A stretch of DNA of 64,000 nt from Acarospora socialis (lineage: Eukaryota; Ascomycota; Lecanoromycetes; Acarosporales; Acarosporaceae): contig JAMYGW020000006.1 of assembly GCA_025617375.2 (NCBI GenBank), positions 1,927,001 through 1,991,000 on the forward strand, given 5' to 3'. The position numbers and the translations under genes are program-made. The notes beneath the pieces were generated by a model that searched no databases, was not told where the DNA came from, and saw nothing but the letters and a program-made list of their open reading frames with translations. This document shows, in pieces, positions 27,101 to 59,504 of the stretch; the first letter of the stretch is position 1; each line of letters starts with the position of its first letter.

Positions 27101-29101
27101 TTTCACATTCTCTCTTCAAATGAAAGTTCACTGAAAGTAACTTATTACTGAATCTCTTCAGATCAGTCAGATCATTCTAAATATTATATTAGATTTTATT
27201 TCTGTGATTGTAAGAGATTCATGATGCTTGCAAATCTCTTCATTGTCATTGTGAATGAAGATCTGTTCATGATACATATTATATATAATTATCAGTTGTT
27301 GATTAATATCAACAGCATCTTTCACAAAGAATAAAAATACTAAATTTAAAATTATAACTATGTTCAGATGCAGAAAGTTGATGTTATTTCTGCTGTTCAT
27401 CATTGTTCATAGTTTTCACTTCACAAGATATATCACAATTTATAGAGCTTTCTTCTTGAAAAGATTCAACTGAGAAAACTTATATATCTTGTGTACAGTC
27501 TCTTTCTTGAAAGACTCTGTCTTCATAAACTTTTTCTTTGTCTTTTCAGTGATACTATTCTTCTTTGAGAATTCATATGCTCTGTGAAAACTTCACAAAC
27601 TTTTTTTGTTTACAACATTTGCAGAAGATCTATTTTTCTTGATGCTTCAGCAGTTTCTTATAAGATGATTAATCTTATTGCAATTGAAGCACTTAATAAA
27701 TTGATCTCTATCACTCTGAGAAACTTTTTTCTCAGATCTTGTTGCAGATTTATTGTTAGTCTTTTGAAAAGACTCAAACTTCTTTTGATAGAGTGATGCT
27801 TTCTTTTGCTCATAAAAGAATAGATTGAGTCATAATTTTTTTGTGAAAACTATCATGTTCTCTTTAATATTAAACAGCTCTGATTGTTTACAAATCTTTT
27901 TGTACATGAGTTCATTCAGATTACAATAAAAGAGCATGACTTGAATCTTATTCATCTTGTTTACTTCACTCTCTATCTGAAATTAAAGTTCATTATAATG
28001 ACAGAGATATTTCTCATTCAACTTCTCATCTCTTTTATTTGCTCACAATCACTTCATTCAGATATTATGAGTTCAATTTGTTTTATTTTTCAACAAATTC
28101 TCTAAAAATTTCTTCAAAAGTTCTCATTCTTCTGCAAGCTTTTTCTCTTTACAGTATGTCTTTTATTGATTTATGACAAAGTAATGTAAATAATGAATCA
28201 TCTCTGAATACTGAGTCTTCTTTGACATATTCTCTGTATTAATATTTATCTGATGACAGAAATCACAATAGTGACTATAAATGCTGCTTTTATAGAGATT
28301 CATACTTGAGAGTATCTTTATGAGTTAAGTTCATTTAGCTTCACAATCTATCTCTAGATTTGCAGACTCAGAGTAATCATGTTTGATTTGTGCACAAAGT
28401 TGCAAATTTATATGCTCTTGCTCTGTGAGCTGAATTCTTAACTTTAGTTTATGAATCACAGCATTTTCTGAGAATTTCTCAAATTTCAATGTCTTCATGA
28501 GAGTGTTTACTATCTCACAAAGAAATTCTTTGTTCTTTCACAAAGTATATCTGATCTTGTGAACAACTTCTTTAGATTTGTGAATTTGCTCATTGATCTT
28601 GTGAAATATGATTTGCATCTCACAAACTTCAAATTTATTCTCTTTTTCTTCTTCTTCATCATCTGACATTCACAGTATGAAGTTCTCATCACTTTCAAGT
28701 TTGTCAGTAATTAATTCATGAACATCTTCAGTAAAATCATTCACAGAGACTTCAGACTTCTTTAGATGCTTAGATTTCTTTTACATCACAAAGTTCTTTA
28801 ATTTCACTTCTTTCACTCACATGATTCTTTCTGCTCTTCACAAGAATTGTTTTGATCTTGAAGTTATTGTTAAATAACTACTTTACAATAAATCAGAGCA
28901 ACAATATTGTGAGACTGATCTTGACAGTTACATGATAATGAACTTTAAGAGTTGAGATGCATAGATAGAATTGTTGCTAGTTTTTGCAAAAGAAAAAGTG
29001 TGCACTTTTATTTCTTTGTGAAGACTGACTTACTAAGCATACTAGCTATGCAAGATCTCACAAGAGAACTCTAGCTCTTCACAAATCAGAGTGAGCTTAC
29101 A
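21175..29101 (-). mobile_element. Element F: fossil Ty3/gypsy element inserted in E
   Basis: LTRs of 194 bp at 21,175-21,368 and 28,908-29,101 (TGTGAGACTG...CTTACA on the plus strand) are flanked by a perfect target duplication AATGT (21,170-21,174 and 29,102-29,106). Coding parts read on the minus strand: gag with a zinc knuckle (CFNCNKINHLIRNC, near 27,650-27,690) and reverse transcriptase at about 26,000-26,900 (FVIVFLNNILIYF). RNase H and integrase should follow toward 24,000 but are hard to recognise. The long region 21,370-23,800 between pol and the 3' LTR holds a minisatellite and plus-strand open stretches. At 7.9 kb it is longer than its neighbours and belongs to a different family. 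It is broken many times. Confidence 0.82.
21540..22075. repeat. Degenerate minisatellite inside element F
   Basis: Tandem units built on the motif TTTCACAA. The right part (about 21,845-22,065) has units near 39 bp, each containing TTTCTGACATTTCACAAGCT followed by TACTCAGCTGTCACAAAT, about five to six copies. The left part has shorter, more decayed units with TTGCAGATCTT and TTCACAAATTT. It lies between the pol region and the 3' LTR of F. Confidence 0.65.
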
Positions 29102-31299
29102 AATGTAATATAAACATTATAAGTACACTGTCATGTTATTTAAACTGAAAAATGCATCTGTTATCTTTCAAAAACTAATTAATGATACATTATGAAAGTA
29201 TCTTGATGACTTTGTAATCACATATTTTAACAATATTCTGATATATTCAGAAGATCTTAAAAAGCACAAAGAACATGTGCACAAGATACTGAAGAGACTC
29301 AAGAAAAGAACTCTATATATAAAAGAATTAAAAAGTAGATTCAAAATTCAGAAAGTCAGTTTTCTAGACTATGTGATTTGATCTGAATGTATTGAGAAGA
29401 ATTCAGAAAAGATAGTGACAGTCAGACACTAATCAACATTAATATGAGTCAAAAAAAGTACAGATCTTTCTAGAATTAATGAACTATTACTGAAAATTTG
29501 TATTACACTATGTGAAAATAATGAAATCTCTCATGTAACTGATGCAGAGAAGTAAGAGATGATGTTGAGATAAGAAGTAAGAAAATGTGTTTTATGCACT
29601 AAAGAGAAATCTTAGTGAAATAACTCATCTTGTAATATCTCAACCAACATGCAAGAAGATATCAAAAATCAACACTTTAGATTTCACAGTAAATGCATGT
29701 CTGTATTAAATTGAAGATAAACAAAGAAGATTCATAGTGTTTTGATCTAGAAAATTGTCAGAATTCAAGAAAAAATATGAGATTCATGATAAGAAACTTC
29801 TTACAATAGTGAAAGCACTGCAAGATTAAAAATCTTATCTTGCAGAAATAAGTAAGTTAATTCAGATCTTTATGAATCACAAGAATCTGAGAAACTTTGC
29901 AACAATAAAGCAACTCAATCAGTGACAGATTTGTTGAACAAAGCAGTTAGTCAATTTTGAATTTCAGATTCATTACAAGAAAAATAATAAAAATAATAAA
30001 GCAAATACTTTGAGCAGATAATCTGATCATGAAGAAGTAAAATGAGTTTATGCTGAAATTCTCAGTGAAGATAACAACAAAATTCTTATAAAAAGCTTAA
30101 CAACAACATACAAGATAGAACAGACTTTCTTGATGAATGAAAAACTCATTGAAATATATCATCATGACAAAATCAAAGAACATTTGAGAGTCAAATACAC
30201 AGAAGATCTAGTGCAAAGAAGATACAATATTAACAATTTTAGAAAATGAGTCATCAGAATGATCACTGTGTGTAATTCATGTTGAAGAAATAAGATTAAA
30301 CAAGATAAACAATATGATAAAGTAATACAACTAAATGCATTAAATGCATCATGAGAATCAGTTACTATAAACATCATTATGAAGTTATCATCATCAAAAG
30401 ATTCAGCATGAGAAGTGAGATTCAATAGTATATTAACTATAGTGAACAAATCAATCAAGTACACAATGTTCATTTCATTCAAAGAGATCATGACAGCATC
30501 AGTATTGATATATATCATACTGCAAGAATTAATTAATAATTACAGACTATTAAAAAAGTTTATTACTGACAAAGACAAGCTGTTTACAAGCAAATTTTAA
30601 GAAATGCTCACAGCAGAACTTGAGATAAAACACAAAATATTAATGATATATTATTCACAGATAAATGAGCAAAGTGAGTGAATGAATCAGACAGTAAAAA
30701 TATACTTAAAACACTATGTCAATGAAAATCAGAATGACTGAATATGACTGTTGTCAACAATACAGTTTGTGTACAACAACACAAAAAACAAGATCATGAG
30801 AAAAACATCTTTCTACATGAACTATAACTACAATTCAGAGATATAATGAGATCTCAGAAAATACAGATCACAGAGTTAAAAAGTAATTGTGAATATTGTA
30901 CAGATAAAGAAACTGTATCAAGATTTAATGAAATGAATTGAACAGCAAATGAAATGAGCAATAAAGACAAAATCATTTGAGAAAGAAAAGAAAATATATT
31001 TAAAAATAAACAACATAAAAACTAAAGAAAAAAGCAAGAAGCTGAAGAACAAAAGCATTGAATCATTCAGAATTATATGAGACATCAAGAAGTTAAGTTA
31101 TGAATTAAACTTATTCAAGAAAATGAGAATACACTCAATATTTCATGCATTCATGCTACAGCATTGCAATCAATTCATATTACTTTAAATCATTGAAACA
31201 TCTGTCAAACTCAATGAAGAATATGAAGTTAAGAATATTTTAAGAAAGAAAATGATTAGTAAAAAAGTTCACTATCTTATAAAATGAAAAGATCATAAT

Positions 31300-31850
31300 A
31301 TCTCAGAGAATATCTGAGAGTTCAAGAGAAATTTTAAGAACTGTGTGAAAACACTTCAATATTTTGAAAAAAGAAGTCAATATTAGTTCAGAAGAATGAA
31401 AACATTGAGTTGATAAGTTGCAACATTGTTTGAAAATTTTCATTCTCAGTTTCATTATTATTACTATTAAGCTCAACAGCAAGACAATCAGTCTTTTGCA
31501 AAGCACAATGATCTATTTGATTCAATATTCATTGAAAATGCATAACTTTCAAGAAAAGTGCAGCAAGCTCAGCATGCTTGATTGTCAATTTGCTGTTTGC
31601 TTTACTTATTTTCTTTTGAAGTGAAAGTCAAGTTCTATTGAGAGACTCTCACAATACATTGACACACAGATGATCATGACAAGTATATTTGTTATATTTT
31701 GATTAAGATTTCATTACAAAATAATTGATATCACAACTGACACAATAGTCACAAGAACACAAAGCAGACACATCATCAATCTGAATTTTCTTTGCAATTT
31801 TTAGACAATTGAAATTTTTAAAAAGCATTGTTGCTGATAACAGACAATGT
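31300..31850 (-). other. Element E antisense accessory frame (decayed)
   Basis: On the strand opposite to gag-pol, between the chromodomain segment and the 3' LTR, lies sequence related to the antisense frames of elements A, B, C and D. A cysteine-rich part lies near 31,690-31,800 and a Ser/Asp-rich part near 31,300-31,506. It is the most decayed of the five. Described as a fossil part of E. Confidence 0.5.
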
Positions 31851-31906
31851 GAATATTCTCACTTATATAAATTCTAAAAAATTAACATCTGAGAAGAGAA
31901 GAATAA

Positions 31907-32277
31907 TATTATAATCAAGTCAAAGTAAACTTAAAGTGAACTGATGTATATACATGAAGAATGTATATTCAGAAGATATTTAGACAGCAGTTATGTGATA
32001 TTTCAATATGCTTAATGACAAGCTTGATGAGCAAGTTCAATAAGTGCATAAATAAGTTGTCTTAACAGACTTAACAATGAGACTAATGAGTAAGCTCAGT
32101 ATATAGACACAGTTATTTTTTTTATGAAAAGAATTATGTTTAACTTCTAGTTACAATTTAGATGTTATCAGACAATCACTGTATGAAAGAATTCTTATAT
32201 TAACAAGATTAAATTCTTAGTTCTAATATATTTAAGAAATCTCAGATTGAACATTACACTTCAGTTAGAATGTAACA
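31907..32277 (+). repeat. Element E 3' LTR (371 bp)
   Basis: Pairs with the 5' LTR at 17,848. It is preceded by a purine-rich tract and followed by CTGAA, the right-hand target duplication. It ends TGTAACA. Confidence 0.85.
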
Positions 32278-32860
32278 CTGAAGACAGTCAAAACAGTTAG
32301 ATTTCTTCTGCAAATCTTATGATCTGATTGTGAAAAGAAAACAACATTGTGTGTTGAGATGCATACAGCACTGTGTCATACAACACAGTTAGATATTGAT
32401 TTGACTGACTGTTACTACTATGACACAAGCACTACAAATCAATACATTAAGACTTGATAATCTCAACTGACAAAAAGTCAGATCTTTTGCTGATGTATAA
32501 GTATTTTTTTATTTAATATTGCTTGTACAATGCTAATATATTTAAAATTACTTTCATCATCTCACAGAAGAGAAATTTTATGATTATTTATTTTTTGATG
32601 ATTGTATTATCATGCTGACTATATATATGTCAATTGTATGATGAAAGATTTATGAATTTGTGCAACTGTGAAATAATCACATCATACAATGACAATTCAA
32701 TTATTTCAATACTGTAACTGATCAGTTTCATGTGCTATATAATTATTCAGAAACAGTTGCAGCAAAGAATTATGACATGTCAGTGAACATGAATTTCATT
32801 GATCAATTACAGACATCATATGCAAGTTGAGATACATATTCTTAATTCACTAGTATTGTA

Positions 32861-33593: not shown

Positions 33594-34007
33594 TGTTACA
33601 GTCAAGTCAGAACAGACTTGAGACAGATCAGTGTGTATATGAAAAGAGTATACACTCAGAAAACTGCTAGACAGCAGTCATGTAACATCTCACTGTGCTC
33701 AATGTGCAGACAGTGAGCTGAGCAAGCTAGACAGCAATCACATGACATCTCATCATGCTCAACATGCAGAAGATGAGCTGAGTGAGCTGAAACTTAATGT
33801 GCTTGATGTGCTCAACAATGAGATCAACAAGAGATAACAAGCACAGTACCTATATAGTAGAATCATTTTTCTTATGAAAACAATCATGTTCAACTTAAGT
33901 AACAATCTAAGAGTTAAAGATCAGAATCATTTCAGATCAGTTGTTATATCAATAAGCACAAACTCTTAGTTCTACATACTCAAGAAATCTCAGGTTAGAA
34001 TGTTACA
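33594..34007 (+). repeat. Element A 5' LTR (414 bp)
   Basis: Starts TGTTACAG and ends ATGTTACA. It contains two tandem 60-bp units (33,666-33,725 and 33,726-33,785) and a CTATATAGTA TATA-like box near 33,850. CTTTGAACATTC follows directly, the likely primer-binding site. The last 170 bp are shared with the LTRs of B and E. Confidence 0.9.
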
Positions 34008-37000
34008 CTTTGAACATTCTTATGATATAATGAGTATGATGTTTAATATTCAGAAAAATGTCTCAATCTTGTTCTTGAAGCAAGCTCAAGCAAACTCATC
34101 TTTATCATCTATCTCAAGTAAAGTGACAGCACAATCAGCAATGTCAGCTCAGATAATACAACTATCTGCAAATGCACTAAAAATTCAGGTATCTGATGCT
34201 TTTGATGAAGAATGAGAAAAGTTGTGAGTCTTTGTGGTGAAGCTTGACCTGTACATTGAATTCAATCAACTGAAGTTTCATACTGATCAAGAAAAGACAT
34301 TGTTTGTGATGATTTATCTCATGAACACAGTCTTCAATTGAGTTAATCTCAAGCTGCATGAGTTCTTGAGAAAGAAATACAAAGAATGCAACACAGACAC
34401 AAAGTTTATGTTCAGTAACTATACATAATTCAAGAAAAAACTCAAGAAAGTCTTCAGAGTAATCAACAAAGAAAGAGCAGCAGAGAAATAAGTTTACATC
34501 TTGCAACAGAGTGAATCAGCAGCAGTATATGTCACAAAGTTTCAGTGATTAGTAGCACTTATCAGATAAAACAACAAAGCACTCATCTATCAGTACTATT
34601 GTAAGTTGAGAAAGTTCATCAAAGACAAGATAGTCTGAGCAAAACAATCAAACAATCTTCAGAGAATGATCAATTTGAGCATTAATATCAACAGTTGTCA
34701 ATAGAAACAACAGATGAAACAGAAAAAATATTGAATGTCATTTATGATAAAAGATCAAGAAGAAAGCTTCTGACTGTGAATCAAGCAATATATTTTATCA
34801 ATAAGACATAGAAGAACAGACTCTATGAATCTCAATATAATCAAGAAGTGTTGTCAGAAGTCATGAAAGACTAAATGAGTGAAGTATGAATGTCAGTCAG
34901 AGTGATTCACTAAGTCTTAGATGATATCACAAAACAAAATATGAACATGTTACAACTGCAGAAAACTCAAACATCTTGCTTGAGAATGCAACAGATCTTA
35001 AATGAAAAGAAAAAATGTTGCAGTGACAGTCAAGAAAAATATATGCATAGTGCATGACACTCTCAGCTGAACAATCTGTTACAATGACATGTGCAGAGTA
35101 CACATGAGTGCAAAAGATAAAGCTGAATGATATTCTCAGAGACTGTGCAAGAGTGTGAAGAACAGATATGATGTGATGAGTTAATCAATCTACAAGAAAG
35201 AATTAGCTATTCTTATCAAGAAAAAAGTTCTTGATGCTGAGAAAGAAGACAATGTTCTTGAAGATGACATCAAAGAGACTGATGATCATGAATTTCAGAT
35301 TGATGAATCTTAAATATTTTTTGACAGTGATACACTTACAGAAGAAAGTTCAGACAATACTGAGACAGAACTTTCAAGAAAGTACTGAACAAAGATTGAA
35401 GAGAATCTAAGTATTCAGAGAAAAATGACATCAGATTGCAATACAATGCAAAAGAAAAAGCAAGAAACTCAAGATCAGAAAGCAGAGATATGCAAAGAAT
35501 TTAATGATCTAATAAAAGACATATAAACAGTTACAGAAAAGCTGATGTCAGAATTTCTTGTGTGAAGAATCAAGAGTCACAAGATTAAGATATACTTATC
35601 TGAAGAGTATATCATGCAGAATGAAAACAGATGAATCTTCAGTGAAGAATATATATCATCTGAATTTCTGCAAAGAGTAAGAGTCTTTGAGAGTCAGTTG
35701 CAGATAAAGTACAATCAGTATGAACTCTGACTACACTTAGAAAGACACATTGAGCAGCACAGTCTAAAGTATGTGAATCTTATGATCAAAAGAAAACTCA
35801 GATGATTTCAAGAACTTTGAAGATGAGCTGAACAATCAAGTGAGTCAAAAAATGAAAAGCTTTCTTGACAAGACTAGAGAGTAAGAAGCTAGCAATGTCT
35901 CAAAGACAAGACAATGATCATTGAATATGAATCAAAATTATGATCAATGAACATCAAATCAATACATTGATGAATTTTGAAGCAAACAGTAACATTATAA
36001 ATCAAAAGACAGTCAATATGTTAGAATTAGAGACACAGTGAGCACACTGTTCATTCAACATACAAATGATGAACAGAGTCATTGAAAGAATCAATGAGAA
36101 AATCTGTGTGATGATCTTGATTCTTGAAAACTCACAAGAGATCATGTTTGATGTCATGAAGTTGATTAAATATGATGCAATGCTAAGAATGTCTTGATTA
36201 TGCAAAAAGAATCTGTGAATCAATTGAATCACAAAAGAAATATGTGCAGTCAAAGATGCATATGAGATTTCTAAACAATCAGAGATGAGCTTATCAGAAC
36301 ATAAGTCATGAAATCATGAAATACTGCTATTGAATGAAAAGCAATCTAAGTGAATATCATTATACTCAATGAGTAAGAATCAACTCAAGAAAGTTAGAAC
36401 TTATCTTGACAAGAATCTTAAAAGAAAATTCATAAAATCATTAAAATCATCAGCAGAATATCTGATTCTGTTTGTATCAAAGAAGAATGACAGAAAATGA
36501 TTATGTGTCAATTATAGACAACTCAATGAGATAACTCATCAAAACAGTTATTCTCTATCACTGATAGAAGAATTGCAGAATCAGTTAAGCAAAACTAAGT
36601 GATTCATGAGCTTAGATCTTAAGAACATCTATTATCAAGTTAGAATGAAAGAAGATAAAAAATGAAAGACAGTATTCTGAACAAGATATGAACACTATGA
36701 GTACATTATTATGTTATTTGGGCTGAAAAATGTTCCAGTCATCTTTTAAAGATTAATCAACAACACATTGAGAGAATATCTCAATGATTTTGTGATCACA
36801 TATCTCAATGATATTCTGATATACTCAGAAAATCTTGAAAAGCACTGTGAGCATGTGCACAAGATATTGACAAAGCTCAATGAGAGAGCTCTCTACATGA
36901 AAAAGTCAAAAAGCAGATTTGAGATCAAGAAAGTCAAGTTTTTAGACTATGTAATTCAATCTAAACAAATCAAAAAGAATTTAAAGAAGACAGAAGCAGT

Positions 37001-38965
37001 CAGAAACTGATTAATGCTGAAATGAATTAAGAAAGTACAAGTCTTTCTAGAACTGACAAACTATTATTGAAAGTTTGTATCAAACTATGCAAGAATTGCA
37101 GAATCACTGATGCATTTAACACACAAAAGTGAAGAATAGCATTGAGATCAAGAACAGAAGAATGCATTTCACATATTAAAGAAAAGTTTTAGTGAAACAG
37201 TACATCTGAGAATACTCAATTCAGCATGTGAGAAAACACTGAAAACTGATGCTTCAGATTTCACAGTAAAAGCATGTTTGTATCAGATTAAGAATGAGTG
37301 ACAGAAATTCATAGCATATCAATTTAGAAAGTTATCAGAACTCAAGAAAAGATATGAAGTTCATGATAAGAAACTTCTTGCAATAGTGAAAGCACTACAA
37401 GACTGAAGATCTTATCTCACAAAAATGAACAAGTCAATTCAGATCTATACAGATCACAAGAATTTAAGAAACTTCACAATGACAAAACAACTCAATCAAT
37501 GACAGATTTGTTGAGCAGAGCAGTTGGCAGATTATGAATTTCAGATTCATTACAAGAAAAATAATGAGAATGATGAAGCAGATGTCTTGAGTAGACAACT
37601 TGATCATGAAGATGTACAGACAGTACATGCTGAAATTTTAAGCAAAGACAACAACAAAATTCTCACAAAAGATTTAGCAGCAATGTACAAGATAGAGCAA
37701 GCTTTCTTGACAGACAAAGAACTCATAAAGATATATCACTACAGCAGAACTGAAGAACATCTAGAAGTTAAATGCACTGAAGATTTAATGCAAAGAAGAT
37801 GCAACATTAGTAATTTTAGAAATCAAATCATCAAGATGATTGCTGTGTGCAATTCATGCTGAAGAAACAAGATCAGTTGAAATAGATGATATGATGAAGT
37901 AATACAACTAAATGCACTAAATGCATCATGAAAGTCAGTTATCATGAACTTTATTATGAAGTTATCATCATTGAAGAATTCAGCATGAAGAGTGAGATTC
38001 AACAGTATATTGATCATAGTGAATAGATTAATCAAGTACACAATGTTCATTTCATTCAAAGAAACTGCAACAGCACTAGTATTGATGTACATCATACTGC
38101 AAGAATTGATTAGCAATCATGAGCTATTAAAAGAATTTATCATCAACAGAGACAAGCTGTTTACAAGCAGATTTTGAAAGATGCTCACAGCAGAACTTGA
38201 GATAAAACATAAGATGTCAATGACATATTATTCACAGACAGATAGACAAAGCAAAGAAATAAATTAGACAGTAAAAACATACTTAAAACACTATGTCAAC
38301 AGAAATCAAAATGACTAAGTATGACTGTTGTCAATGATACAGTTTGTGTACAACAACACAAAAAATGAAATCACAGAAGAAACATCTTTCTATGTGAATT
38401 ATGACTATAACTCAGAGATATGACAAGATTCTGAGAAACACAGATCACAAAGTCAGAAAGTGATTTTGAATATTGCTCAGATGAAGAAACTACATCAACA
38501 TTTAACAGAATGAATTGAACAGCAGATGAAACAAACAACAGAGATAAAATCATTTGAAGAAGAAGAAAAGATATACTTAAAAATAAACAACATACAAATC
38601 AAAGAAAAAAGCAAGAAGCTGAGAAACAAGAGCATTGAATCATTCAAGATCATATGAAACATCAAGAAGTTAAGCTATGAACTAAACTTACTCAAGAAAA
38701 TAAGAATACATTCAGTATTTCATGCATTCATGTTACAGCATTGCAATCAGTTCATATCACTTTAAATCACTGAAACATCTGTCAAACTCAATGAAGAATA
38801 TGAAGTTGAGAACATTTTAGAAAAGAGAATGATTAGTGAGAAAGTTCACTATCTCATAAAATGAAAAGATTATGATATCTCAGAGAATATCTGAAAACTC
38901 AGAAAGAATCTCAAGAACTATGTGAAAAAAACTTCAACATTTTGAGAAAGAAAGTCAATATTAGC

Positions 38966-39433
38966 TCAGAAGAATGATGATATGAAGTTGATAAGTTGCA
39001 ACATTGTTTGAGAATTTTCATTCTCAGTTTCATCATTATCACTATCAAGTTCAGCAGCAAGACAGTCAGTCTTTTGCACAGTATAATGATTCATTTGATT
39101 CAGAATTTTCTGAAGATGCATAACTTTTAAGAAGAGTGTGATAAGTTCAGTGTGCTTAGTTGTCAAGACATTGTTTGTCTTACTCACTTCTTTCATTGTC
39201 TTGAATATTTTCTTTTGAAGAGAAATATGAGTTTTATTGAGAGACTTTCATGATATATTGACACATGAGTGATCACAGTGAGTACATTTATCACATTTCA
39301 GTTGAGATTTCATTACAAAGCAATCAAGATCACAAGAGACACAATGATCACAGAAAAATGAAATTAAGATGTCATCAAGTTGAATTTTCTTTGTAATTTG
39401 TAGACAGTTGAAATTTTTAGAAAGCATCATCAC
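38966..39433 (-). other. Element A antisense accessory frames with Zn2Cys6 spacing
   Basis: Opposite to gag-pol and between the chromodomain and the 3' LTR. The open stretch 39,248-39,433 (61 residues) carries six cysteines spaced C-x2-C-x6-C-x8-C-x2-C-x6-C, the GAL4-type Zn2Cys6 pattern, with a core DLDCFVM. The open stretch 38,966-39,196 is probably helical with an acidic patch ELDSDNDETENEN. The same arrangement recurs in elements B, C and D. It may encode a DNA-binding or regulatory protein of the element; function is inference only. Confidence 0.6.
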
Positions 39434-39505
39434 TGATAATGAACAATGTGAATACTCTCACTTATATAGACTCTAGAAAACTAGTGTTTAAGAAGAGAAG
39501 AATGA

Positions 39506-39919
39506 TGTTATGATTAAGTTGAGATGAGCTTGAAACAGATCAGTGTGTATATGAGAAGAACATACACTCAGAGAACTGCTAGATAGCAGTCACATGACAT
39601 CTTACTGTACTCAATGTGCAGACAGCAAGCTGTGCAAGCTAGACAGCAGTCACATGACATCTCACTGTGCTCAATGTGCAAAAGATGAGCTGAGTGAGCT
39701 GAAGCTTGATGTGCTTGATGCACTCAATGATGAAATTAACAAGAGATGACAAGCACAGTATCTATATAGTAGAGTCATTTTTCTTATAAAAACAATCATG
39801 TTCAACTTAAGTAACAATCTAAGAGTTAAAGACCAGAATCATTTCAGATCAGCTGTTATATCAATAAGCACAAATTCTTAGTTCTACATACTCAAGAAAT
39901 CTCAAATTAGAACATTACA
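39506..39919 (+). repeat. Element A 3' LTR (414 bp)
   Basis: Same length as the 5' LTR. It is preceded by the purine tract AAGAAGAGAAGAATGA and followed by CTCAG, the right target duplication. Differences from the 5' LTR are almost all transitions. Confidence 0.9.
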
Positions 39920-39924
39920 CTCAG

Positions 39925-40500
39925 TCTGAACATTTAGTTCAGATTTTAATGATTATAATTATGATTAATAAGTGAACTCATGAACTAGGGTTCAAGAATT
40001 TAGATTGAAAAAGTGTAATACATGAGTGTTATAAGTGAGTGTTATATTGTGAACAAAAATATTGCTTTCATTCTAAGATTACTATTTATCACATCAAGAA
40101 GACAGTATTTCTGAAGTAACTCTAATTACTTTTACTTTAATTTACATCTTTTGATGCAATATTTCAGTTATGTATATATCTCTTGATGAGAATCATGTTC
40201 TTTTGCTGAATGATAATTCACTTTGTGTGAATTGCAGCAAGATTAACATCTAAACAAGTTAGTTTATAGTTTCTTAACAGTGTGTTCAACATACTTTCAA
40301 AGAAAACAACAACATATACTTCTGCAGCTTCTTGCAGATTCTTTATGACTGAGATTTGAAATTGAAAGTTCTTGTCATGATGTCAAATCTTTATTGAATA
40401 GTTCTGAGTGATTTTCTGACATAGTTGTTAAAAGAAAAGTTTTTTCATCAAGAAAATGATTGATCTCTGATAGCAATGTATTTCACAAAGAATGACAATT
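39925..40500. other. AT-rich gap between element A and the left minisatellite
   Basis: No gene or recognised element is visible. It is CpG-free AT-rich sequence. Together with 32,861-33,593 it was one continuous stretch before element A inserted. Confidence 0.35.
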
Positions 40501-41280: not shown

Positions 41281-41640
41281 TGTTACAACCATGTCTGAAG
41301 AGAAAAAAACCCATGAGTCTGAAATCAGAAGTTTGTCTGAAGTGTGTATGAAGAAACTGCTAAACAGCAGTCATATAACAGTACAACAGCTCAATGATGA
41401 GCAGACAAGCTGAAAGCTCAATCTCTCAACATCAAGACATCAAGATATCAAGAGAGTTCAATGCAGAGATGTTGAGCATGTTCTATATAGTAGAGTTGTT
41501 TTTCTTATAAAAACAATCATGTTCAACTTAAATAATCATCTAAGAGTTAAAGACCAGAACCATTTCAGACCAATTGTTATATTAACAAGCACAAACTCTT
41601 AGCTCTACATACTCAAGAAATCTCAGGTTAGAACATTACA
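41281..41640 (+). repeat. Element B 5' LTR (360 bp)
   Basis: Starts TGTTACAACC and ends AACATTACA, with a CTATATAGTA box near 41,490. It is followed by CTTTGAACACTC. The same LTR type occurs as the solo copy at 18,049-18,409. Confidence 0.88.
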
Positions 41641-43389
41641 CTTTGAACACTCTTATGATATAATGAGTATGATGTTTGACACACAGAAAAATGTCTCAAC
41701 TTTGTTCTTGAGACAAGCTCAGACAAATTCATCTTTACTATTTACTTCAGATAGAATGACAGCACAATCAGCAATGATGCTGACTTAGACTATACAACTA
41801 TTTCTGAGTGCATCTAAGATACAGATATCAAATATCTTTGATGAAGAGAGAGAGAAGCTGTGAGTCTTTGTGACTAAACTTAATCTATACATTGAATTTA
41901 ATCAGCTGAAGTTTCAAATCAATCAAGAAAAGACACTGTTTGCAACAACCTATCTTGTGAATGCAGCTTTTGATTGAGTTGATCTCAAACTGCATGAGTT
42001 TCTAGAAAAGAAATATGAAGAATGCAATGCAGACACAGAGTTTATGTTTAATGACTACATATGATTTAAGAAAGAATTAAGAAAAGTCTTTAAAGTAATT
42101 AATGAAGAAAGAACAGCAGAAAAATGAGTTTACATCTTACAACAAAGTGAATCAGCAGCAGTATATATCACAGAGTTTCAGTGATTAATGACACTTATCA
42201 GATAAAATAATGAAGCACTCATCTATTAGTACTATTATGAGTTGAGAAAATTCATCAAGAACAAAATAACTCAAGCAAAACAATCAGATAATCTTCAGAG
42301 AATGATTGATCTGAATATTAACATTAATAGTTGTCAATGAGAACAACAGATGAAACAAAAAGAATATTGAATATTATCTATGATAAAAGATCAAGAAGAA
42401 AGCTTCTGACTGTGAATGAAGCAATATATTTCATTAATAAGACATAGAGAAACAAATTCTATGAATCTCAATGTGATTAAAAAGTGTCATCAGAAATCAT
42501 GAAAGATTAAATGAACAGAGTATGAATGTCAGTCAGAGTGGTTCACTAAGTCTTAGATGACACTGTGAAATGAAATGTAAATGTGTTACAACTGCAGAAA
42601 ACTCAAACATCTTGTCTGAGAATGCAACAGATCTCAAATGAAAAGAAAGAATATTGCAGTGACAGTCAAGAAAAATACATGCATAGTGCATGACACTCTC
42701 AGCTAAACAGTCTGTTACAATGACATGTGCAGAGTACACATAAGTGCAAAAGATAAAGCTGAATAATATCTTCAGAGATTACACAAAGACATGAAGAACA
42801 GATATGATGCAAGAAGTTAATCAATTTACAAAAAAGAATTAGCTATTCTTATCAAGAAAAGAGTTCTTGATGCTGAGAAAGAAGACAATGCTCTTGAAGA
42901 TGACATTGAAGAGACTGATGATTATGAATTTCAGATTGATGAATCTTAAATATTTTCTGACAACAATACACTCACAAAAGAAAGTTTGAACAATGCTGAG
43001 ACAGAGTTCTCAAGAAAGTACTGAGCAAAGATCAAAAGAGATCTAAGTATCAAGAGAGAAACAGCATCAAATCACAATACAATGTAGAAAAAAAAGCAAA
43101 ATCAGAAAGCAGAGATATATTAAGAATTTGATGATTTAATAAGAGATATACAAACAGTCATGAGAAAACTGATATCAGAATCTCTTGTGTAAAAAATCAA
43201 GAGTCACAAGATCAAGATATGCTTATCTGAAGAGTATATCATGCAGAATGAAAACAAGTGAACTTTCAGCAAAGAATATATATCATCTGAATTTCTGCAA
43301 AGAGTAAAAGTCTGTGAGAGTCAATTGCAGATGAAATATAATCAGTATGAATTTCAACTACATCTGAAAAGATGCATTGAGTGACACAG

Positions 43390-43705
43390 TGTTATGTTTC
43401 AACTGAGATTTCTCAATTATAGGACTAGAGTTTGTGCTTCTTGATACAAAGGTTCAAAGGTTCTAGGTAAACAGTAGCTTTGTATTGCATAACTAGATGA
43501 GTTGAACATGATTGATTTCATAAGGGAATCAACCCTACTATATAGAAATAAACACACTGACACACTCAGCATTTCAGTGTTCTGATGTGTTCTTGGCACA
43601 TGCTTACAAGAAAATGTCTGACATTTTATCATTTCATGCTTAGAATTATGCCTGCTTCAGGTGTACCCTCTATCACACTACTCTTCTTGAAATATGATCA
43701 TAACA
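43390..43705 (-). repeat. Element C 3' LTR (316 bp)
   Basis: Left copy, which is the 3' LTR because the element points left. It equals the right copy in length. A pyrimidine run just to its right (CCATCTCTCTTTTT) is the polypurine tract on the coding strand. Confidence 0.9.
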
Positions 43706-43759
43706 CCATCTCTCTTTTTCAGATGCTAGTTCTCTAGAGTTTATTTAAGTGAGAGTATA

Positions 43760-44220
43760 TATCAGCACTTGTTCATCATCTCTTTTTGATGATGCATCTG
43801 AAATTCAAAAATCATCTTCACCTTGTCAATACTATCTTTCATAAAGAAAATCCTGCACTCATTTCTTGTGATCATTGTCTTGACATTGATCTCTCTTGTA
43901 TTGTAATGTCTTCTGATTCTTTGATGTTGTCTGACTTCTTGAAGTCTGTGAAGTGTACTGAATGTGTGCATCAAGATCATCTCTGCATCAGTCTCTCTCT
44001 TGACTTCTTAGAGTCTGTTTGTTTAAAGACTGAGAATGAGCTCTCTCTGACTCTTGATGAGCAACTTTCTGTGTTCTTAGCAAAAATTGCTAGATTGTGA
44101 AAAATCTTGAAACAGTTCAAAGCTCAAATTGACACAAGAGCAAAGTGTCTCACTGAAGAGCTGACAGATGATAATGATGGAATGAAGAACAAAAATTCTT
44201 GATCAATGTCACAACTTATG
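43760..44220 (+). other. Element C antisense accessory frame with Zn2Cys6 spacing
   Basis: Opposite in direction to the gag-pol of C. The 104-residue open frame 43,786-44,100 has six cysteines spaced C-x2-C-x6-C-x18-C-x2-C-x6-C (CDHC...C...CTEC...C), then a Leu/Glu-rich region, with further acidic sequence up to about 44,220. It is the best preserved of the antisense frames in this nest. Function unknown; a Zn2Cys6-like DNA-binding domain is inferred from spacing only. Confidence 0.6.
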
Positions 44221-47200
44221 AATACAATATCTTCATTCTTCTGGTCTAACCTCAACTCTCTTTCTCAAAATGTCAAAGCATTCTTACACAGTTCTTGAGG
44301 TTTTCTCCTGGCTCTCAGGTACTCTTTGAGATATTGTAATCTTTTTACTTGATGAGATAGTGAGCTTTCTCACTAATCATTCTCTTCTCTAGAATGTTCT
44401 CAACTTCATATTCTTCATTGAGTTCAACAGGTGTTTTGGTGGTTTGAAGTGGTATGAACTGATTGCAGTGCTGTAGCATGAATGCATGAAATACTGAGTG
44501 TATTCTCATTTTCTTGAGTAGATCTAGCTCATAGCTCAACTCCTTGATGTTTCATATGATCTTGAATAGTTCAATGCTCTTATTCTTCAGCTTCTTGCTT
44601 CTTTTCTTGATCTGTATGTTATTCATTTTTAAATATATCTTTTCTTCTTCTTCAAATGATTTTGCCTCTGTTGTTCATTCTGTTTGCTGTTTGATCTGTT
44701 TTGTCAGATCTTGATGCAGTTTCTTTAACTGTGTGATGTTCAAAATCACTCTCTGACTTCATGATTCATGTTCTTTGAAATCTTGTCAGACTTTCAGATT
44801 ATAGTCATAGTTCATGTAGAAAGATGTTTCTTTCATAGTCTTGTTTTTCACATTGTTGTACACAAACTGTGCCATTGACAACAGTTGTACTCAGTTGTTC
44901 TGACTTTCATTTACATAGTGTCTTAAGTACATTTCTACCATCTGATTCATTCATTTGCTTTGCTCATCTGTCTGTGAGTGATATGCTGTTGACATCTTGT
45001 GTTTTATTCTGAGTTCTGCTGTGAGTGTTTTTCAGAACTTGCTTGTAAATAGCTTGTCTCTGTTGGTGATAAACTTCTTTGATAGTCTGTGATTACTAAT
45101 CAATTCTCTTAGTATTGTATATGTCAACATTGGTGCTGTTGCAGTTTCCTTGAATGAAATGAACATTGTGTATTTTGTCAATCTGTTCACTATGATCAGT
45201 ATACTATTGAATTTCACTTCTCATGCTGAGTCCTTTGACAGTGATAGTTTTGTAATGAAGTTCATAGTAACTGATTTTCATGGTGCATTCAGTGCATCTA
45301 GTTGTGTTACTTTGTCATATTGTTTATCTCAGTTGATCTTATTTTTTTGACATGAATCACACACAGCAATCATCTTGGTGATTCAATTTCTAAGATCACT
45401 AATGTTGCATCTTCTTTGCACTAAATCTTCTGTGCATTTAACTTTCAGGTGTTCTCTGATTCTGCTGTGATGACATATCTTGATGAGTTCTTTGTTGATT
45501 AAAAAAGCTTGCTTCACCTTATACATTGCTGCTAAGTTCTTCATGAGAATTTTGTTGTCATCTTTGCTCAGAATTCTGATGTGTACCATCTGTATGTCTT
45601 CATGATTGAGTTGTCTGCTCAAGACATCTGCTTCATCATTCTCATTATTCTTCTTGTAATGAATCTGAAATTTGTAGTCTGCTAACTGCTTCACTCAATG
45701 AACTTGTTGTTGATTGAGTTGTTTTGTCATTGTGAAGTTTCTCAGATTCTTGTGATCTGTATAGATCTGAATTGACTTGCTTATTCTTGCAAGATAAGAT
45801 CTTCAATCTTGCAGTGCTTTCACTATTGCAAGAAGTTTCTTGTCATGAACCTTGTATCTTTTCTTGAGTTCTGATAATTTTCTAGATCAATATACTATGA
45901 GTCTTTGCTGTCTCTCTTCAATCTGATATAGATATGCTTCTACTGTGAAATCTGAAGTGTCAGTTTTCAGTATCTTCTCACATGCTAAATTGAGTATTCA
46001 CAGATGTGCTGTTTCACTAAGACTTTTCTTTAATATGTGAAATGCATCTTTCTGTTCTTTATCTCAATGTCATTTTTTGCTCTTGTGTGTCAAATGTGTC
46101 AGTGATTTCACAATTCTTGCATAGTTTGATACAAACTTTCAATAATAGTTTGTCAATTCTAGAAAGACCTGTACTTCCTTGATTCATCTTGGTGTTGGTC
46201 AGTTTCTGACTGCTTTCATTTTCTTTGAATTCTTCTCAATTTGTTCAGGTTAAATCACATAGTCTAGAAACTCAACTTTCTTGATCTCAAACCTGCTCTT
46301 TGACTTTTTCATGTACAAGACTCTCTTGTTAAGTTTTGTCAAGATCTTCTGCACATGCTTATGATGCTTTTCAAGGTTTTCTGAGTATATCAGAATATCA
46401 TTAAGATATGTGATCACAAAATCATCAAGGTATTCTCTCAACATGTCATTGATTAATCTCTGAAAGATGACTGGTGCATTCTTTAGTCTGAATGGCATAA
46501 TGGTATACTCATAATGTTTGTATCTTGTTTGAAATGCTGTTTTTCATTCTTTGTCTTTCTTCATTCTAACTTGATAGTAGGCATTCTTAAGGTCTAAGCT
46601 CATGAATCACTTAGCTTTGTCTAATTGGTTCTGCAACTCTTCTATCAATGGTAGAGAATAACTGTCTTGATGAGTTATCTTGTTGAGTTGTCTGTAATTG
46701 ACACATAGTCACTTTTTGTCATCTTTCTTTGATATGAACAGAATCAGATATTCTGCTGATGACTTTAATGGTTTGATGAATTCTCTCTTAAGATTCTTGT
46801 CAAGGTAAGTTCTAACTTTCTTGAGTTGTTCTTTGCTCATTGAGTATAATGGCATTCACTTAGGTTGCTTTTCATTCAATAGTGATATTTCATGATCTCA
46901 TAACTTATGCTCTGATAAGCTCATTTCTGGTTGTTCAGAAATCTTGTATGTGTCTTTAACTGTGTATATTTCTTTTGTAACTCAATTGATCTTTGAGTTT
47001 CTTCTGTGCAATCAAGGCATTTCTAGTACTGCATTGTAACTGATTGATTTCATGACATCAAACATGATCTCTTGTGAGTTTTCAAGAATCAAGACTTTCA
47101 CACAGGTTTTCTTGTCAATTCTTTTGATGACTTTGTTTGCTATTTGTATGTTGAATGAACAGTGCACTCACTGTGTAATTAATTCTAACATATTGACTAT

Positions 47201-49145
47201 CTGTTGACTCATGATGTTATCATTCACTTCAGAATTCACCAATGTGTTGATCTGGTGTTCATTAATCATGATCTTGATTCATATTCTATGATCATTATTC
47301 TGTCTTTGAGATGCCACTAGCTTCTTATTCTCTAGTCTTGTTGAGAAAGCTTTTCATTTTTTGACTCACTTGATCATTCAGCTTGTCTTCAAAGTTCTTA
47401 AAATCATCTGAGTTTTCTTCTGACCATAAGATTTGCATACTTTAGACTGTGCTGCTCAATGTATCTTTCTGAGTGTAGTTGAAGTTCATACTGATTGTAC
47501 TTCATCTGCAACTGACTCTCACAGACTCTTACTCTTTGCAGAAATTCAGATGATATATACTCTTCATTGAAGATTCATCTGTCTTCATTCTGCATGATAT
47601 ATTCTTCAGATAAGTGTATCTCAATCTTGTGACTCTTTGTTCTTCAAACAAGAAATTTTGACAATACTGTGTCATCACTGCTGAAACATTCATCTTTAAC
47701 AGCTGTCATCAGCTTCTCTAGCTGGTCATATGTCTCTTGTGTCTTTATATTCTTGTGTTGCACTTTCTGTTTCTGAGCTTGTGTCTCTTGCTCAAGCTCT
47801 TGCTTCTTGAATCAAAGTCTTTCTTCTTTCAACACTCATTGTTAATTCTCAGAGTGCTGATATGCTGTCTTCAGCTTCATATTGACTTCTTATTTGTCAA
47901 TTTCTTTCTGGTCTGCATTTAAATTCAGTACTTGTCAGATGCTATCACTGTAGTCTTCTTCTATCTGAGTTTCTCAAGTATTGATCTCTTTGATCTTGAC
48001 ATCAAGAACATCTTTCTTGATAAGAATAGTTAATTCTTTCTTATAGATTGATTGACTCATTGTGTCATATCTATTTCTCATGTCTTTGTGCAGTTTCTGT
48101 GGATACTATCTGACTTCATCTTTTGTACTCATATGTGTTCAGCACATATTGTCATAACAGGCTGTTCAACTCAGAACATCATGCACTATGCTGAGTTTCT
48201 TTGTTTTTGTTTCAACCATTATCACTGCAACATTCTTTCTCTCTATTCAAGGTCTATTGCACTTTTGAGTGAGGTGTTCAGGTTTTTCACAGTTGTAACA
48301 TGTTCACATTTCATCTCACAGTGTTATCTGAGACTTAATGAATCATTCTGTCTGACATTCAGACTCTGCTTATTTAGTTCTTTATAACTTCTGATGGTGC
48401 TTCTTGATCACATTGAGATTCATAGAGTTCAAGTATAATTGTCTCTAATTTTCTCTCTGAGATCTACTTGTTCATTTCTGTTGTCAGTAGTTCTTTCTTT
48501 TCATCTGATGTTCTCATTGATGACTGTCTATCATAATCATCTGATTGATTAATTCTTGCAAATTGTTGAGTTTCTTGTCTTGTGCAATCTCATCTTTGAT
48601 AGACTTCTTCAAGTCTCAATAGTATGTTGATGCTAACTGATTCATGTTTCATTGCATGAGTGTTGCAAGTCATTGAAACTCTGCCACATACTTGACTGCA
48701 AATTCTTCTTGTCATAACATGTGTATCTTTTGTTCTGCTGCACATTTCTCATTCATTACTCTGAAGATCACTTTAAGCTTCTTCTTGAACTGTTCTCAAT
48801 GACTGATGTATGAGATGTTTACTTCTTTCTCTCTCAGACTCATGGTCAGAAACTCTTTGAGCTTGAGTTTGACTCAGTTGAATGCTGTGTTCTTCAGGTA
48901 GGATATTGTGAACAAGACTCTGTTGATATTGCTTGAAAACTTCTTCACATTGAATTCAATGTACAGGTCTAGTTGAGCAAGAAATTGTCTCAGGTTTCAT
49001 TGATTGCCCATAAAGTTCTCTGGTGTCTTGACTTTGAGTATTTTTGAATTGACATTGACTGTCTTTGTTGATTTGATGCTCTGTGATGCACCATCTGAGG
49101 TTGATTCTTTGAATGACATTCTTTGTATTGTGAGAGTGTTCAAAG

Positions 49146-49461
49146 TGTTATGTTTCAACTGAGATTCCTTGATTATAGGGCTAGGGTTTGTGCTTCTTGA
49201 TACAAAGATTCAAAGATTCTAGATAAACAGTAGCTTTGTATTGCATAACTAGATGAGTTGAACATGATCAATTTCATAAGAAAATTGATCCTACTATATA
49301 GAAATAGACACACTGACACACTCAGTGTTTCAGCATTCTGATGTGCTCTTGACACATGCTCATGAGAAAACACCTGATGTTTCATCATTTCATGCTTAGA
49401 ATTATGTCTGCTTTAGGTGTACTCTCTATTATGTTATTCTTCTTGAAGTATGACTGTAACA
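49146..49461 (-). repeat. Element C 5' LTR (316 bp)
   Basis: Right copy, the 5' LTR of the left-pointing element. The internal sequence next to it reads CTTTGAACACTC on the coding strand, the same primer-site sequence as in A and B. Confidence 0.9.
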
Positions 49462-52400
49462 CACAGTTTAAAGTATGCAAATCTCATGATCAAAAGAGAA
49501 TCAAGATAATTTCAAGAACTTTGAAGACAAGCTGAATGAACAAGTAAGTTAAAAAATGAAGAGCTCTCTTGACAAAACTAGAGAAAAAGAAGCTAGCAGC
49601 ATCTCAAAGAAACAACAATAATCATTAAATATAAATCAGAGTTACAATCAACAAACATCAAATCAACACATTGATGAATTCTGAAGCAGACAGTAACATT
49701 ATAAGTCAAAAAATAGTTAATATGTTAGAATTAGAGACACAGTGAGTTCACTGTTCATTCAACATACATATGATGAATGAAGTCATCAAAAGAATTGATG
49801 AGAAAATCTGTGTGAAAGTCTCAATTCTTGAAAATTCACAGAAGATAACATTCAATGTTATGAAATCAATCAGATATGATGCAGTACTAAAGATGCTCTA
49901 GTTGTGTGAAAGAAATCTGAAGATTGACTGAATTACAAAAGAAATATGTACAGTTAAAGACACATACAAGATTTCTAAACAATCAAAGATGAGCTTATTA
50001 GAGTATAAGTCATGAAATCATGAAATACTGCTATTGAATGAGAAGCAATCTAAGTGAATATCATTATACTCAATGAGCAAAGATCAACTCAAGAAAGTAA
50101 GAACTTATCTTGACAAGAATCTCAAGAAAGAATTCATAAAATCATCAAAATCACTGGCAGAATACCTGATTCTGTTTGTATTAAAGAAAAATGAAAGAAA
50201 ACAACTATGTGTTGATTACAGACAACTCAATGAGATAACTCATCAAAATAGTTATTCTCTATCATTAATAGAAGAGTTGCAGAATCAATTAAACAAGACT
50301 AAGTGATTCATGAGCTTAGATCTTAAGAACATCTACTATCAAGTAAGAATGAAAGAAGATGAAGAATGAAAAACAGCATTTTGAACAAGATATGAACATT
50401 ATGAGTATATCATTATGTCATTTGAGCTGAAAAATGTTTCAGCAATCTTTCAGAAATTGATCAATGACATATTGAGAGAATATCTTAACAATTTTGTAAT
50501 TACATATCTTAACAATATTCTGATATATTCAGAAGATCTTAAGAAGTACTGTGAGCATGTGCACAAGATATTGACAAAGTTCAACAAAAGAGTCTTGTAT
50601 GTGAAAAAGTTAAAAAGCAGGTTCAAGATCAAGAAAGTTGAGTTTCTAAACTATGTGATTCAATCTGAACAGATCAAGAAGAATTCAAAGAAAATAAAAG
50701 CAGTCAGAAACTGATCAACATCAAAATGAATCAAGAAAGTACAAGTCTTTCTAGAGTTGACAAACTATTATTAAAAGTTTATATCAAATTATGCAAGAAT
50801 TACAGAATCACTGACACATTTAACACACAAAAGCAAAGAATAACATTGAAATCAGAAACAGAAGAATGCATTTAACATATTAAAAAGAAGTTTTAGTGAA
50901 ACAGCATATCTGAGAATATTCAATTTGACATATAAGAAAATACTGAAAACTGATGCTTCAGATTTCACAGTAAAAGCATATTTATATTAGATTGAGAAGA
51001 AACAACAAAAACTCATAGCATATCAATTTAGAAAGCTATCAGAACTCAAGAAAAAATATGAGATTCATGACAAGAAACTTCTTGCAATAGTAAAAGCACT
51101 ACAAGATTGAAGATCTTATCTCACAGAGACAAACAAGTCAATTCAGATATATACAGATCACAAGAACTTGAGAAACTTCATAATGACAAAACAACTCAAT
51201 CAATGACAGATTTGTTGAGCAGAGCAGTTGGCAGATTATGAATTTCAGATTCATTACAAGAAAAATAATGAGAATAATGAAGCAGATGTCTTGAGCAGGT
51301 GATCTGATCATGAAGATGTACAAATAATATATGTTGAAATTCTCAGCAAAGACAACAACAAAGTTCTCACAAAAGACTTAACAGCAATGTACAAGATGAA
51401 ACAAGCTTTCTTGACAGACAAAGAACTCATTGAGATGTGTTATTACAGCAAGATTGAAGAACATCTGAAAGTTAAATGCACTGAGAATCTAGTGCAAAGA
51501 AGACACAATGTTAACAATTTTTGAAATTAAATCATCAGAATGATTGCTGTGTGTGATTCATGCTGAAGAAATAAGATTAACTGAGATAAATGATATGATG
51601 AAGTAACACAACTAAACACATCAAATGCATCATGAGAGTCAGTTATTATGAACTTCATTATGAAGTTATCACTGTCTAAGAACTCAGCATGAGAAGTGAA
51701 ATTCAATAGTATATTGATCATAGTGAACAGATTAATCAAGTACACAATGTTCATTTCATTTAAAGAAATCACAACAGCATCAATATTGACATACACAATA
51801 CTAAGAGAATTGATTAGCAATTATGAGCTATTAAAGAAGTTTATCATCAACAGAGACAAACTGTTTACAAGTAAGTTTTGAGAAACACTCACAGCAGAAC
51901 TCAGAATAAAACATAAAATATTAATGACATATCATTTACAGATGAATGAACAAAGTAAATGAATGAATTAAACAGTAAAAACTTACTTAAAACACTATGT
52001 CAACAAGAATCAGAATAACTGAGTACAACTATTGTCAATGATACAGTTTGCATACAACAACACAAGAAATGAAATCACAGAAGAAACATCTTTCTACATG
52101 AACTATGACTATAATTCAGAGATATAATGAGATTTCAAAGAACACAGATCATGAAGTCAGAAAGTAATTCTGAATATCACTTAGATAAAGAAACTGCATT
52201 AAGATCTAACAAAACAGATTGAACAGCAGACAGAACAAACAACAGAGATAAAATCATTCAAGAAAGAAGAAAGAGTGTATTTAAAAACAGACAACATACA
52301 AATTAAAGAAAGAAGCAAGAAGCTGAAGAATAAAAGCATTGAATCATTTAAGATTATATGAAACATCAAAGAGTTAAGCTATGAGCTAGACTTACTCAAG

Positions 52401-52701
52401 AAAATGAGAATATACTCAGTATTTCATGCATTCATGTTACAGCATTGCAATCAGTTCATATCACTTCAGATCATCAAAACATCTGTTAAACTTAAAGAAG
52501 AATATGAAGTTGAGAACATTCTAGAAAAGAGAATGATTAGTGAAAAAGCTTATTATCTCATGAAATGAAAAGATTACAATATCTCAGAAAGTATCTGAGA
52601 ACTCAGAGAAAATTTTAAGAACTGTGTAAGAATACTTCAACATTTTAAGAAGAAAGATTAACATTGATATTAGCTCAGAAGAATGATGACATCAAATTAA
52701 C

Positions 52702-53115: not shown

Positions 53116-53199
53116 TCATTCTTTTTTTCTCAGGTGCTAGTTCTCTAAAGTCTATATAAGTGAGAGTATTCACATTGTTTGTTGTCAGTGATGATGCTT

Positions 53200-59026: not shown

Positions 59027-59031
59027 TCAAC

Positions 59032-59448: not shown

Positions 59449-59504
59449 TATATACTCTCACTTAAATAAACTCTAGAGAACTAGTGCCTGAAGAAAAAAA
59501 ATAA

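What the first reader, a model, noticed from the sequence alone, without database searches (positions are those of the whole stretch)
38966..39433. Antisense Zn2Cys6-like frame carried by several fossil chromoviruses
Elements A, B and C each carry, on the strand opposite to gag-pol and between the chromodomain and the 3' LTR, an open frame whose six cysteines follow the GAL4-type spacing: C-x2-C-x6-C-x8-C-x2-C-x6-C in A (39,248-39,433), x9 in B (59,245-59,448) and x18 in C (43,786-44,100). D and E have the same region in more decayed form. A second acidic motif (ELDSDNDETENE) follows in A and D. The central loop varies while the cysteine frame is kept across three separate elements, which suggests past selection on the protein. 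A retroelement with its own antisense zinc-cluster protein could regulate its own transcription or choose its target sites.
Basis: partly seen in the sequence, partly recalled or inferred. Interest (0 to 1): 0.78.

Follow-up and report, generated by a model that had tools for sequence, protein, structure and literature searches.

The report
Antisense cysteine-cluster gene in fungal retrotransposons
Old, mutation-riddled jumping genes in this fungus carry a small extra gene on the opposite strand, once kept by selection, for a protein with six metal-site-like cysteines; extra antisense genes of this kind are known, but what this protein does is not.

Summary
All five related LTR elements in the window carry an antisense frame between pol and the 3' LTR, in three types. 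The open pieces are fragments of a gene of about 167 codons, cut by stops. The genome lists at least 150 relatives (capped); 137 of the 150 best-matching pol ends have one within 1 kb on the opposite strand. A relative in undecayed DNA (L109) is open throughout.

The six cysteines are real: 436 of 474 cells in 79 copies are Cys, 38 Tyr, none anything else. Several other 'cysteines' are Cys/His mixtures left by RIP at CpG and CpC. Transversions gather at third codon positions of the antisense frame in all three types, not in the flank: past selection on the protein.

'GAL4-type' is spacing only: nothing examined passes the Pfam Zn_clus cut-off, host Zn2Cys6 profiles do not recognise it, and simulated RIP does not explain that. 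The arrangement is in print (brtn of Boty elements). Most likely an accessory regulator of a known kind with its own cysteine cluster; its function is inference.

The parts
38918..39430 (-). antisense gene of element A, from the shared ATG to the last in-frame stop; stops also at 39250 and 38968
43789..44298 (+). antisense gene of element C; in-frame stops at 44098 and 44200 before the end at 44296
53191..53709 (+). antisense gene of element D; many in-frame stops
31334..31828 (-). antisense gene of element F; many in-frame stops
33594..39970 (+). element A, LTRs 33594-34048 and 39506-39970 (85.6% identical)
   Evidence: reverse transcriptase piece 36750-37010 over the Pfam cut-off
43379..49462 (-). 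element C, LTRs 43379-43706 and 49134-49462 (86.0%), inserted in E
   Evidence: reverse transcriptase piece 46250-46543 over the Pfam cut-off
52699..59029 (-). element D, LTRs 52699-53118 and 58610-59029 (88.3%), inserted in E
41281..59865 (+). element E, outer limits; own sequence 41281-43397, 49463-52698, 59030-59865; LTRs 41281-41640 and 59505-59865 (87.5%)
   Evidence: reverse transcriptase piece 50385-50714 over the Pfam cut-off
17846..32279 (+). element F, approximate outer limits, split by another insert at about 21170-29101; LTR match in pieces (92.1% over 177, 81.3% over 203)

Best explanation
It is an antisense accessory gene of fungal Ty3/Gypsy elements, lying tail-to-tail with pol, its shared ATG about 75 bases from the inner edge of the 3' LTR in A. 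It encodes a protein of about 167 residues: a short N-terminal part, a six-cysteine cluster (C-x2-C-x6-C-x8/9/10/18-C-x2-C-x6-C), an amphipathic stretch with a seventh conserved cysteine, and a stretch rich in Asp, Asn and Glu. SHOWN: presence beside most listed pol ends, conservation of the cysteines, past selection on this frame. INFERRED: the cluster binds two metal ions somewhat as Zn2Cys6 proteins do; the amphipathic stretch makes dimers; the gene is read from an antisense promoter in or near the 3' LTR; the protein is a nuclear regulator of the element's own transcription or integration, as HBZ is for HTLV-1. The window copies are dead, broken by RIP at CpG and CpC.
For: Antisense frame in 5 of 5 window elements and beside 137 of 150 listed pol ends, 3 on the same strand. 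Cys in 436 of 474 cells of the six columns, Tyr in 38. Third-position excess of transversions: A 15/10/27, B 23/20/45, C 5/3/22, p 0.0043, 0.00042, 8.8e-6; flank p 0.63, 0.58, 0.20. Between types p 0.0012, 0.0004, 0 of 5000. Undecayed open relative beside a chromodomain pol. Six of the 14 invariant columns over five sequences are the cluster cysteines. Amphipathic stretch: 58 of 2000 (L109) and 108 of 2000 (L112) shuffles reach its periodicity, on a coarser grid than the observed value, so slightly flattering.
Against: In the 30 cluster codons alone the third-position excess is not significant (p 0.24, 0.46, 0.29). In pol, used as positive control, the expected phase leads in B and C (p 0.043, 0.048) but not in A (p 0.85). 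Against A and B, L109 differs nearly as much at first as at third positions (48/25/50 and 45/27/51). L109 also has an open frame of 121 codons on the pol strand across the antisense gene (4394-4759), though phase 2, which that frame would free, is the slowest phase in all three types. Metal binding, transcription and function are untested; the structure prediction failed (pLDDT 49).
Confidence: 0.5

Rival explanations
1. An ordinary host Zn2Cys6 (GAL4-type) regulator fragment captured by an ancestral element, with the same DNA-binding function; RIP has only made it unrecognisable.
For: Cysteine spacing in A, B and L109; L109 reaches 10.8 bits to Pfam Zn_clus in the right register and an hhalign probability of 5.5, above 40 of 40 shuffles that keep the cysteines (best 4.1).
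Against: 10.8 bits is far below the cut-off of 21; no match for the window pieces. Host Zn2Cys6 profile: 0.2, 0.2, 0.9 for types A, B, C, against 95.8-98.0 for 12 host domains left out in turn. After simulated RIP 24 of 27 host domains stay over 50 and none falls under 5. The first loop of L109 has no Lys or Arg.
Confidence: 0.2
2. The protein is not a nucleic-acid binder but a small structural or packaging partner of Gag or integrase, with the cysteine cluster as a protein-protein fold.
For: No match to a DNA-binding family; amphipathic stretch and acidic end.
Against: No direct evidence; antisense reading would uncouple it from Gag-Pol dosage (inference).
Confidence: 0.18
3. What matters is the antisense RNA (silencing or self-limitation), and the coding potential is a relic.
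For: Double-stranded RNA from antisense transcripts is discussed for aORFs (PMC7264820, passages).
Against: Third-position excess of transversions and conserved cysteines mean that the protein was selected.
Confidence: 0.08
4. Artefact: RIP has made cysteines from arginine codons, and the spacing is chance.
For: CpG 0.00 and CC 0.00-0.17 in the elements; several Cys columns are Cys/His mixtures.
Against: The six columns never hold His; they are kept in L109, where CpG and CC are near normal (0.83, 1.02); spacing in 0 to 100 of 100000 shuffles.
Confidence: 0.02

Closest known systems
brtn, antisense gene of Boty-like elements of Botrytis cinerea (Zhao et al. 2011, not held; known here through passages of PMC8365987, PMC7264820, PMC4227169, PMC5987419)
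   Same: Fungal Ty3/Gypsy element with chromodomain; extra gene antisense to gag-pol between pol and the 3' LTR
   Different: BRTN sequence not available here, so homology is untested; no zinc or cysteine cluster is mentioned in the passages seen
Antisense aORFs of plant elements (Grande gene23, RIRE2, Retand; TRP28 domain)
   Same: Place, orientation and near-constant presence; Retand TRP28 ORFs are said probably to bind DNA (PMC11963269, passages)
   Different: Other protein domains; Retand is not a chromovirus and its pol-LTR region is far longer
Fungal Zn2Cys6 (Zn_clus, PF00172) regulators
   Same: Spacing of six cysteines; helical stretch behind the cluster
   Different: Fails Pfam cut-off and host profile; first loop of L109 without basic residues; spacing x18 in type C
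HBZ of HTLV-1
   Same: Antisense protein encoded at the 3' end of a retroelement, with a regulatory role (named in passages of PMC11963269; the antisense promoter in the HTLV 3' LTR in PMC7264820)
   Different: Comparison of how it might work only; no relation by sequence was tested

Membership tests
Antisense additional ORF between pol and 3' LTR | antisense to pol and on its 3' side | tested here: met
   5 of 5 window elements; 137 of 150 listed pol ends
Antisense additional ORF between pol and 3' LTR | coding frame under selection | tested here: met
   not significant in the cluster codons alone
Antisense additional ORF between pol and 3' LTR | transcribed from an antisense promoter | not testable with these tools
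   no RNA data
BRTN of Boty elements | sequence homology to BRTN | not tested
   sequence not held in any collection used
Fungal Zn2Cys6 (PF00172) | six cysteines with C-x2-C-x6-C-x5-12-C-x2-C-x6-8-C spacing (spacing rule recalled) | tested here: met
   A x8, B x9, L109 x10; type C has x18, outside the rule
Fungal Zn2Cys6 (PF00172) | Pfam gathering score of 21 bits | tested here: not met
   no match for the window pieces; L109 10.8 bits
Fungal Zn2Cys6 (PF00172) | recognised by a profile of the host's own Zn2Cys6 domains | tested here: not met
   RIP decay ruled out as the cause in 24 of 27 simulations
Fungal Zn2Cys6 (PF00172) | basic first loop | tested here: not met
   no Lys or Arg between the second and third cysteine in L109; cannot be judged in RIP-mutated copies
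Fungal Zn2Cys6 (PF00172) | binds two zinc ions and DNA | not testable with these tools
   structure prediction on window copies failed (pLDDT 49)
Chromovirus (Ty3/Gypsy) | pol with RT, RNase H, integrase and C-terminal chromodomain | tested here: met
   met in relative L109. In window pieces RVT_1 is over the cut-off in 3 of 8, Integrase_H2C2 and SH3_Tf2-1 are under it; chromodomain not tested in window copies

The most novel reading that the evidence does not exclude
The gene defines a separate, retroelement-borne family of six-cysteine cluster proteins with a helical dimer arm: a fungal counterpart of HBZ, kept as a fixed extra gene while several element families diverged, by which the element controls its own expression or where it inserts.
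Probability: 0.3. Interest if true: 0.72.

Novelty: new member of a known kind. Interest (0 to 1): 0.45.

Why it matters
Antisense extra genes of LTR elements are reported from plants and from Botrytis with no known function. Here such a gene is shown to sit beside most listed pol ends of a fungal genome, to have been under protein-level selection, and to carry a metal-site-like cysteine cluster. That turns an ORF of unknown role into a testable question: does a retroelement bring its own regulator? It also gives a warning for reading decayed elements: RIP at CpG and CpC makes false cysteines and histidines from arginine codons while true cysteine codons stay nearly intact.

Tried and rejected
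Pfam, NCBIfam, PHROGs and PDB sequence searches gave no usable match. Weak PDB hits of A to protein kinase C C1 domains (E 0.11) rest partly on a His column that is a Cys/His mixture in types B and C; rejected. A NCBIfam hit of L109 to a Legionella effector model (E 0.0044, 16 bits against a cut-off of 350) covers residues 91-137, mostly the amphipathic stretch; rejected. AlphaFold2 on the window pieces gave mean pLDDT 49, so no fold search was made. Viral contigs and plasmids gave no relative. No collection that I searched holds fungi other than the window's own genome, so spread beyond it is untested. Paper searches on the theme listed no fungal element with an antisense cysteine-cluster protein; subscription papers are not held. 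Dropped: filing it under Zn2Cys6 (failed tests); calling the window copies live (all five have in-frame stops).

Full report
WHAT IS THERE. The window is G000:C6:1927001-1991000 of a 31.1 Mb genome in 38 contigs; that genome has 68 Zn_clus matches over the cut-off, none of them in the window, so I take it to be a fungus. From about 17 kb on the window is AT-rich. Self-alignment resolves five related LTR elements: A (+, 33594-39970); E (+, outer limits 41281-59865), split by C (-, 43379-49462) and by D (-, 52699-59029); and F (+, about 17846-32279), split by a further insert. Much of the difference must be RIP, so I give no dates.

RIP SIGNATURE. In the elements CpG observed/expected is 0.00 and CC 0.00-0.17; in the first 16 kb they are 0.99 and 0.93. 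RIP of CpG and CpC is reported for Coccidioides (PMC9409882, one passage). A Coccidioides-like origin is an inference from this alone. The consequence for the finding: arginine codons of the CGY kind become Cys or His, whereas TGY codons are nearly untouched. So survival of cysteines in a decayed copy is no sign of selection by itself.

THE ANTISENSE GENE. tblastn of the open pieces finds the frame in all five elements: A 38966-39457 (-), D 53164-53652 (+), E/B 59026-59457 (-), F 31391-31858 (-), C 43753-44241 (+). All five have in-frame stops. Searches of the own genome with the B and C pieces each listed 150 places, the cap. I oriented 83 copies (41 type A, 22 B, 20 C) and aligned 79. The six cluster columns hold Cys in 436 of 474 cells and Tyr in the other 38. 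A seventh column further on holds Cys in 77 of 79. Other Cys-bearing columns are Cys/His mixtures, for example 83 and 100 in all types, 84, 147 and 148 in A and B, 86 in B and C: the mark of RIP on arginine codons, not conserved cysteines.

AN UNDECAYED RELATIVE. L109 (G000:C14:272000-281000) lies in normal DNA (GC 0.49, CpG 0.83, CC 1.02) and holds the antisense frame open over 192 codons at 4234-4812 (+). On the other strand lie pol pieces, in several frames, with RT, RNase H, integrase and chromodomain. The chromodomain frame and the antisense frame overlap tail-to-tail by 53 bases, stops included (4760-4812). Over L109, the C-type copy L112 and the three window pieces 14 columns are invariant, six of them the cluster cysteines. 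By hand, the chance that six given positions all fall among 14 of 72 is about 2 in 100000.

IS IT A GENE. RIP makes only transitions, so I counted sites with a transversion, by phase of the antisense frame (1/2/3): A 15/10/27 (p 0.0043), B 23/20/45 (p 0.00042), C 5/3/22 (p 8.8e-6). In the 5' flank and LTR: p 0.63, 0.58, 0.20. In pol the phase of pol's own third position leads in B and C (p 0.043, 0.048) but not in A (p 0.85). Between types the third position leads by 2.12 (A-B), 1.66 (A-C) and 1.86 (B-C), permutation p 0.0012, 0.0004 and none of 5000. In the 30 codons of the cluster alone it does not (1.30, 1.03, 1.21; p 0.24, 0.46, 0.29). L109 against A, B, C: p 0.011, 0.008 and none of 3000, with first positions nearly as variable as third. 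All three pol-strand frames carry stops across the region in the 11 copies listed, but RIP makes stops, and L109 has a pol-strand frame open over 121 codons there (4394-4759). If that frame were coding, phase 2 should be the fast one; it is the slowest in all three types. I conclude that the antisense frame was under selection at the protein level, by evidence that does not depend on the cysteines.

IS IT PART OF THE ELEMENT. A piece of E's integrase C-terminal region was searched in the own genome; 150 of 332 candidates were scored and listed. Of these 150, 137 have a listed antisense-gene place within 1 kb on the 3' side and opposite strand; 3 have one on the same strand. The 13 misses include E itself, whose 3' end is moved away by D; I did not examine the others one by one. 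The antisense lists are capped, so 137 is a lower bound; the query is from E, so the count is for its near families.

IS IT Zn2Cys6. Spacing says yes for A, B and L109. Profiles say no. Pfam finds nothing in the window cluster pieces and gives L109 10.8 bits against a cut-off of 21. Against 27 host Zn2Cys6 domains hhalign gives 0.2, 0.2 and 0.9 for types A, B and C. A and B lie inside the range of 20 shuffles that keep the cysteines (maxima 2.4, 0.6); C lies just above its own (maximum 0.7), but in a wrong register. Twelve host domains left out in turn give 95.8-98.0. Decay is not the reason: with 20 simulated RIP copies each, 24 of 27 host domains stay over 50 and none falls under 5. L109 alone reaches 5.5, above all 40 shuffles that keep the cysteines (best 4.1) and all 40 full shuffles (best 0.4): remote kinship is possible, membership is not shown. 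I say 'may work like', not 'is'.

HOW IT MOST LIKELY WORKS. Shown: a selected antisense gene beside most listed pol ends, six plus one conserved cysteines, and an amphipathic stretch behind the cluster (58 and 108 of 2000 shuffles reach its periodicity in L109 and L112). Inferred: a two-metal cluster, a dimer, a nuclear regulator read from the 3' LTR side. A captured ordinary host factor and a structural partner of Gag or integrase are the main rivals.

WHAT IS KNOWN. Antisense genes between pol and the 3' LTR are known in plants and, as brtn, in Boty elements of Botrytis; a BRTN match is reported in Monilinia (passages of PMC8365987, PMC7264820, PMC4227169, PMC5987419; the 2011 paper itself is not held). 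Plant Retand elements carry TRP28 antisense ORFs in 97% of clusters, said probably to bind DNA (PMC11963269, passages). For a survey of LTR elements in fungi (PMC3248453) and one of Coccidioides elements (PMC5872316) the term counts seen show no 'antisense' and no 'zinc'. Hence: a new member of a known kind, with a cysteine cluster that I found described in no paper listed by my searches.

Noticed in passing
window 17000-64000: CpG is absent and CC/GG nearly absent in the AT-rich part, so practically every C is followed by A or T: RIP aimed at CpG and CpC, as reported for Coccidioides (PMC9409882, passage).
   Followed up: partly
window 21170-29101: A further insert of about 7.9 kb with 93% direct repeats of 199 bases at its ends (21170-21368, 28903-29101) splits element F; a stretch at 25.6-26.9 kb matches pol of A at about 58% on the opposite strand. 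tblastn showed no antisense-gene match in it among the rows that I could see; part of that output was cut.
   Followed up: no
window 40507-41008 and 60219-60823: Two arrays of a 13-base unit that match each other in inverted orientation flank the nested element E.
   Followed up: no
G000:C14:525486-525809 (not fetched): Another relative of the antisense gene, 52% identical to L109 over residues 92-192 and without stops.
   Followed up: no
window 52921-53043 and 58827-58954: Two tandem copies of a 60-base unit lie within each LTR of D, perhaps promoter repeats.
   Followed up: no
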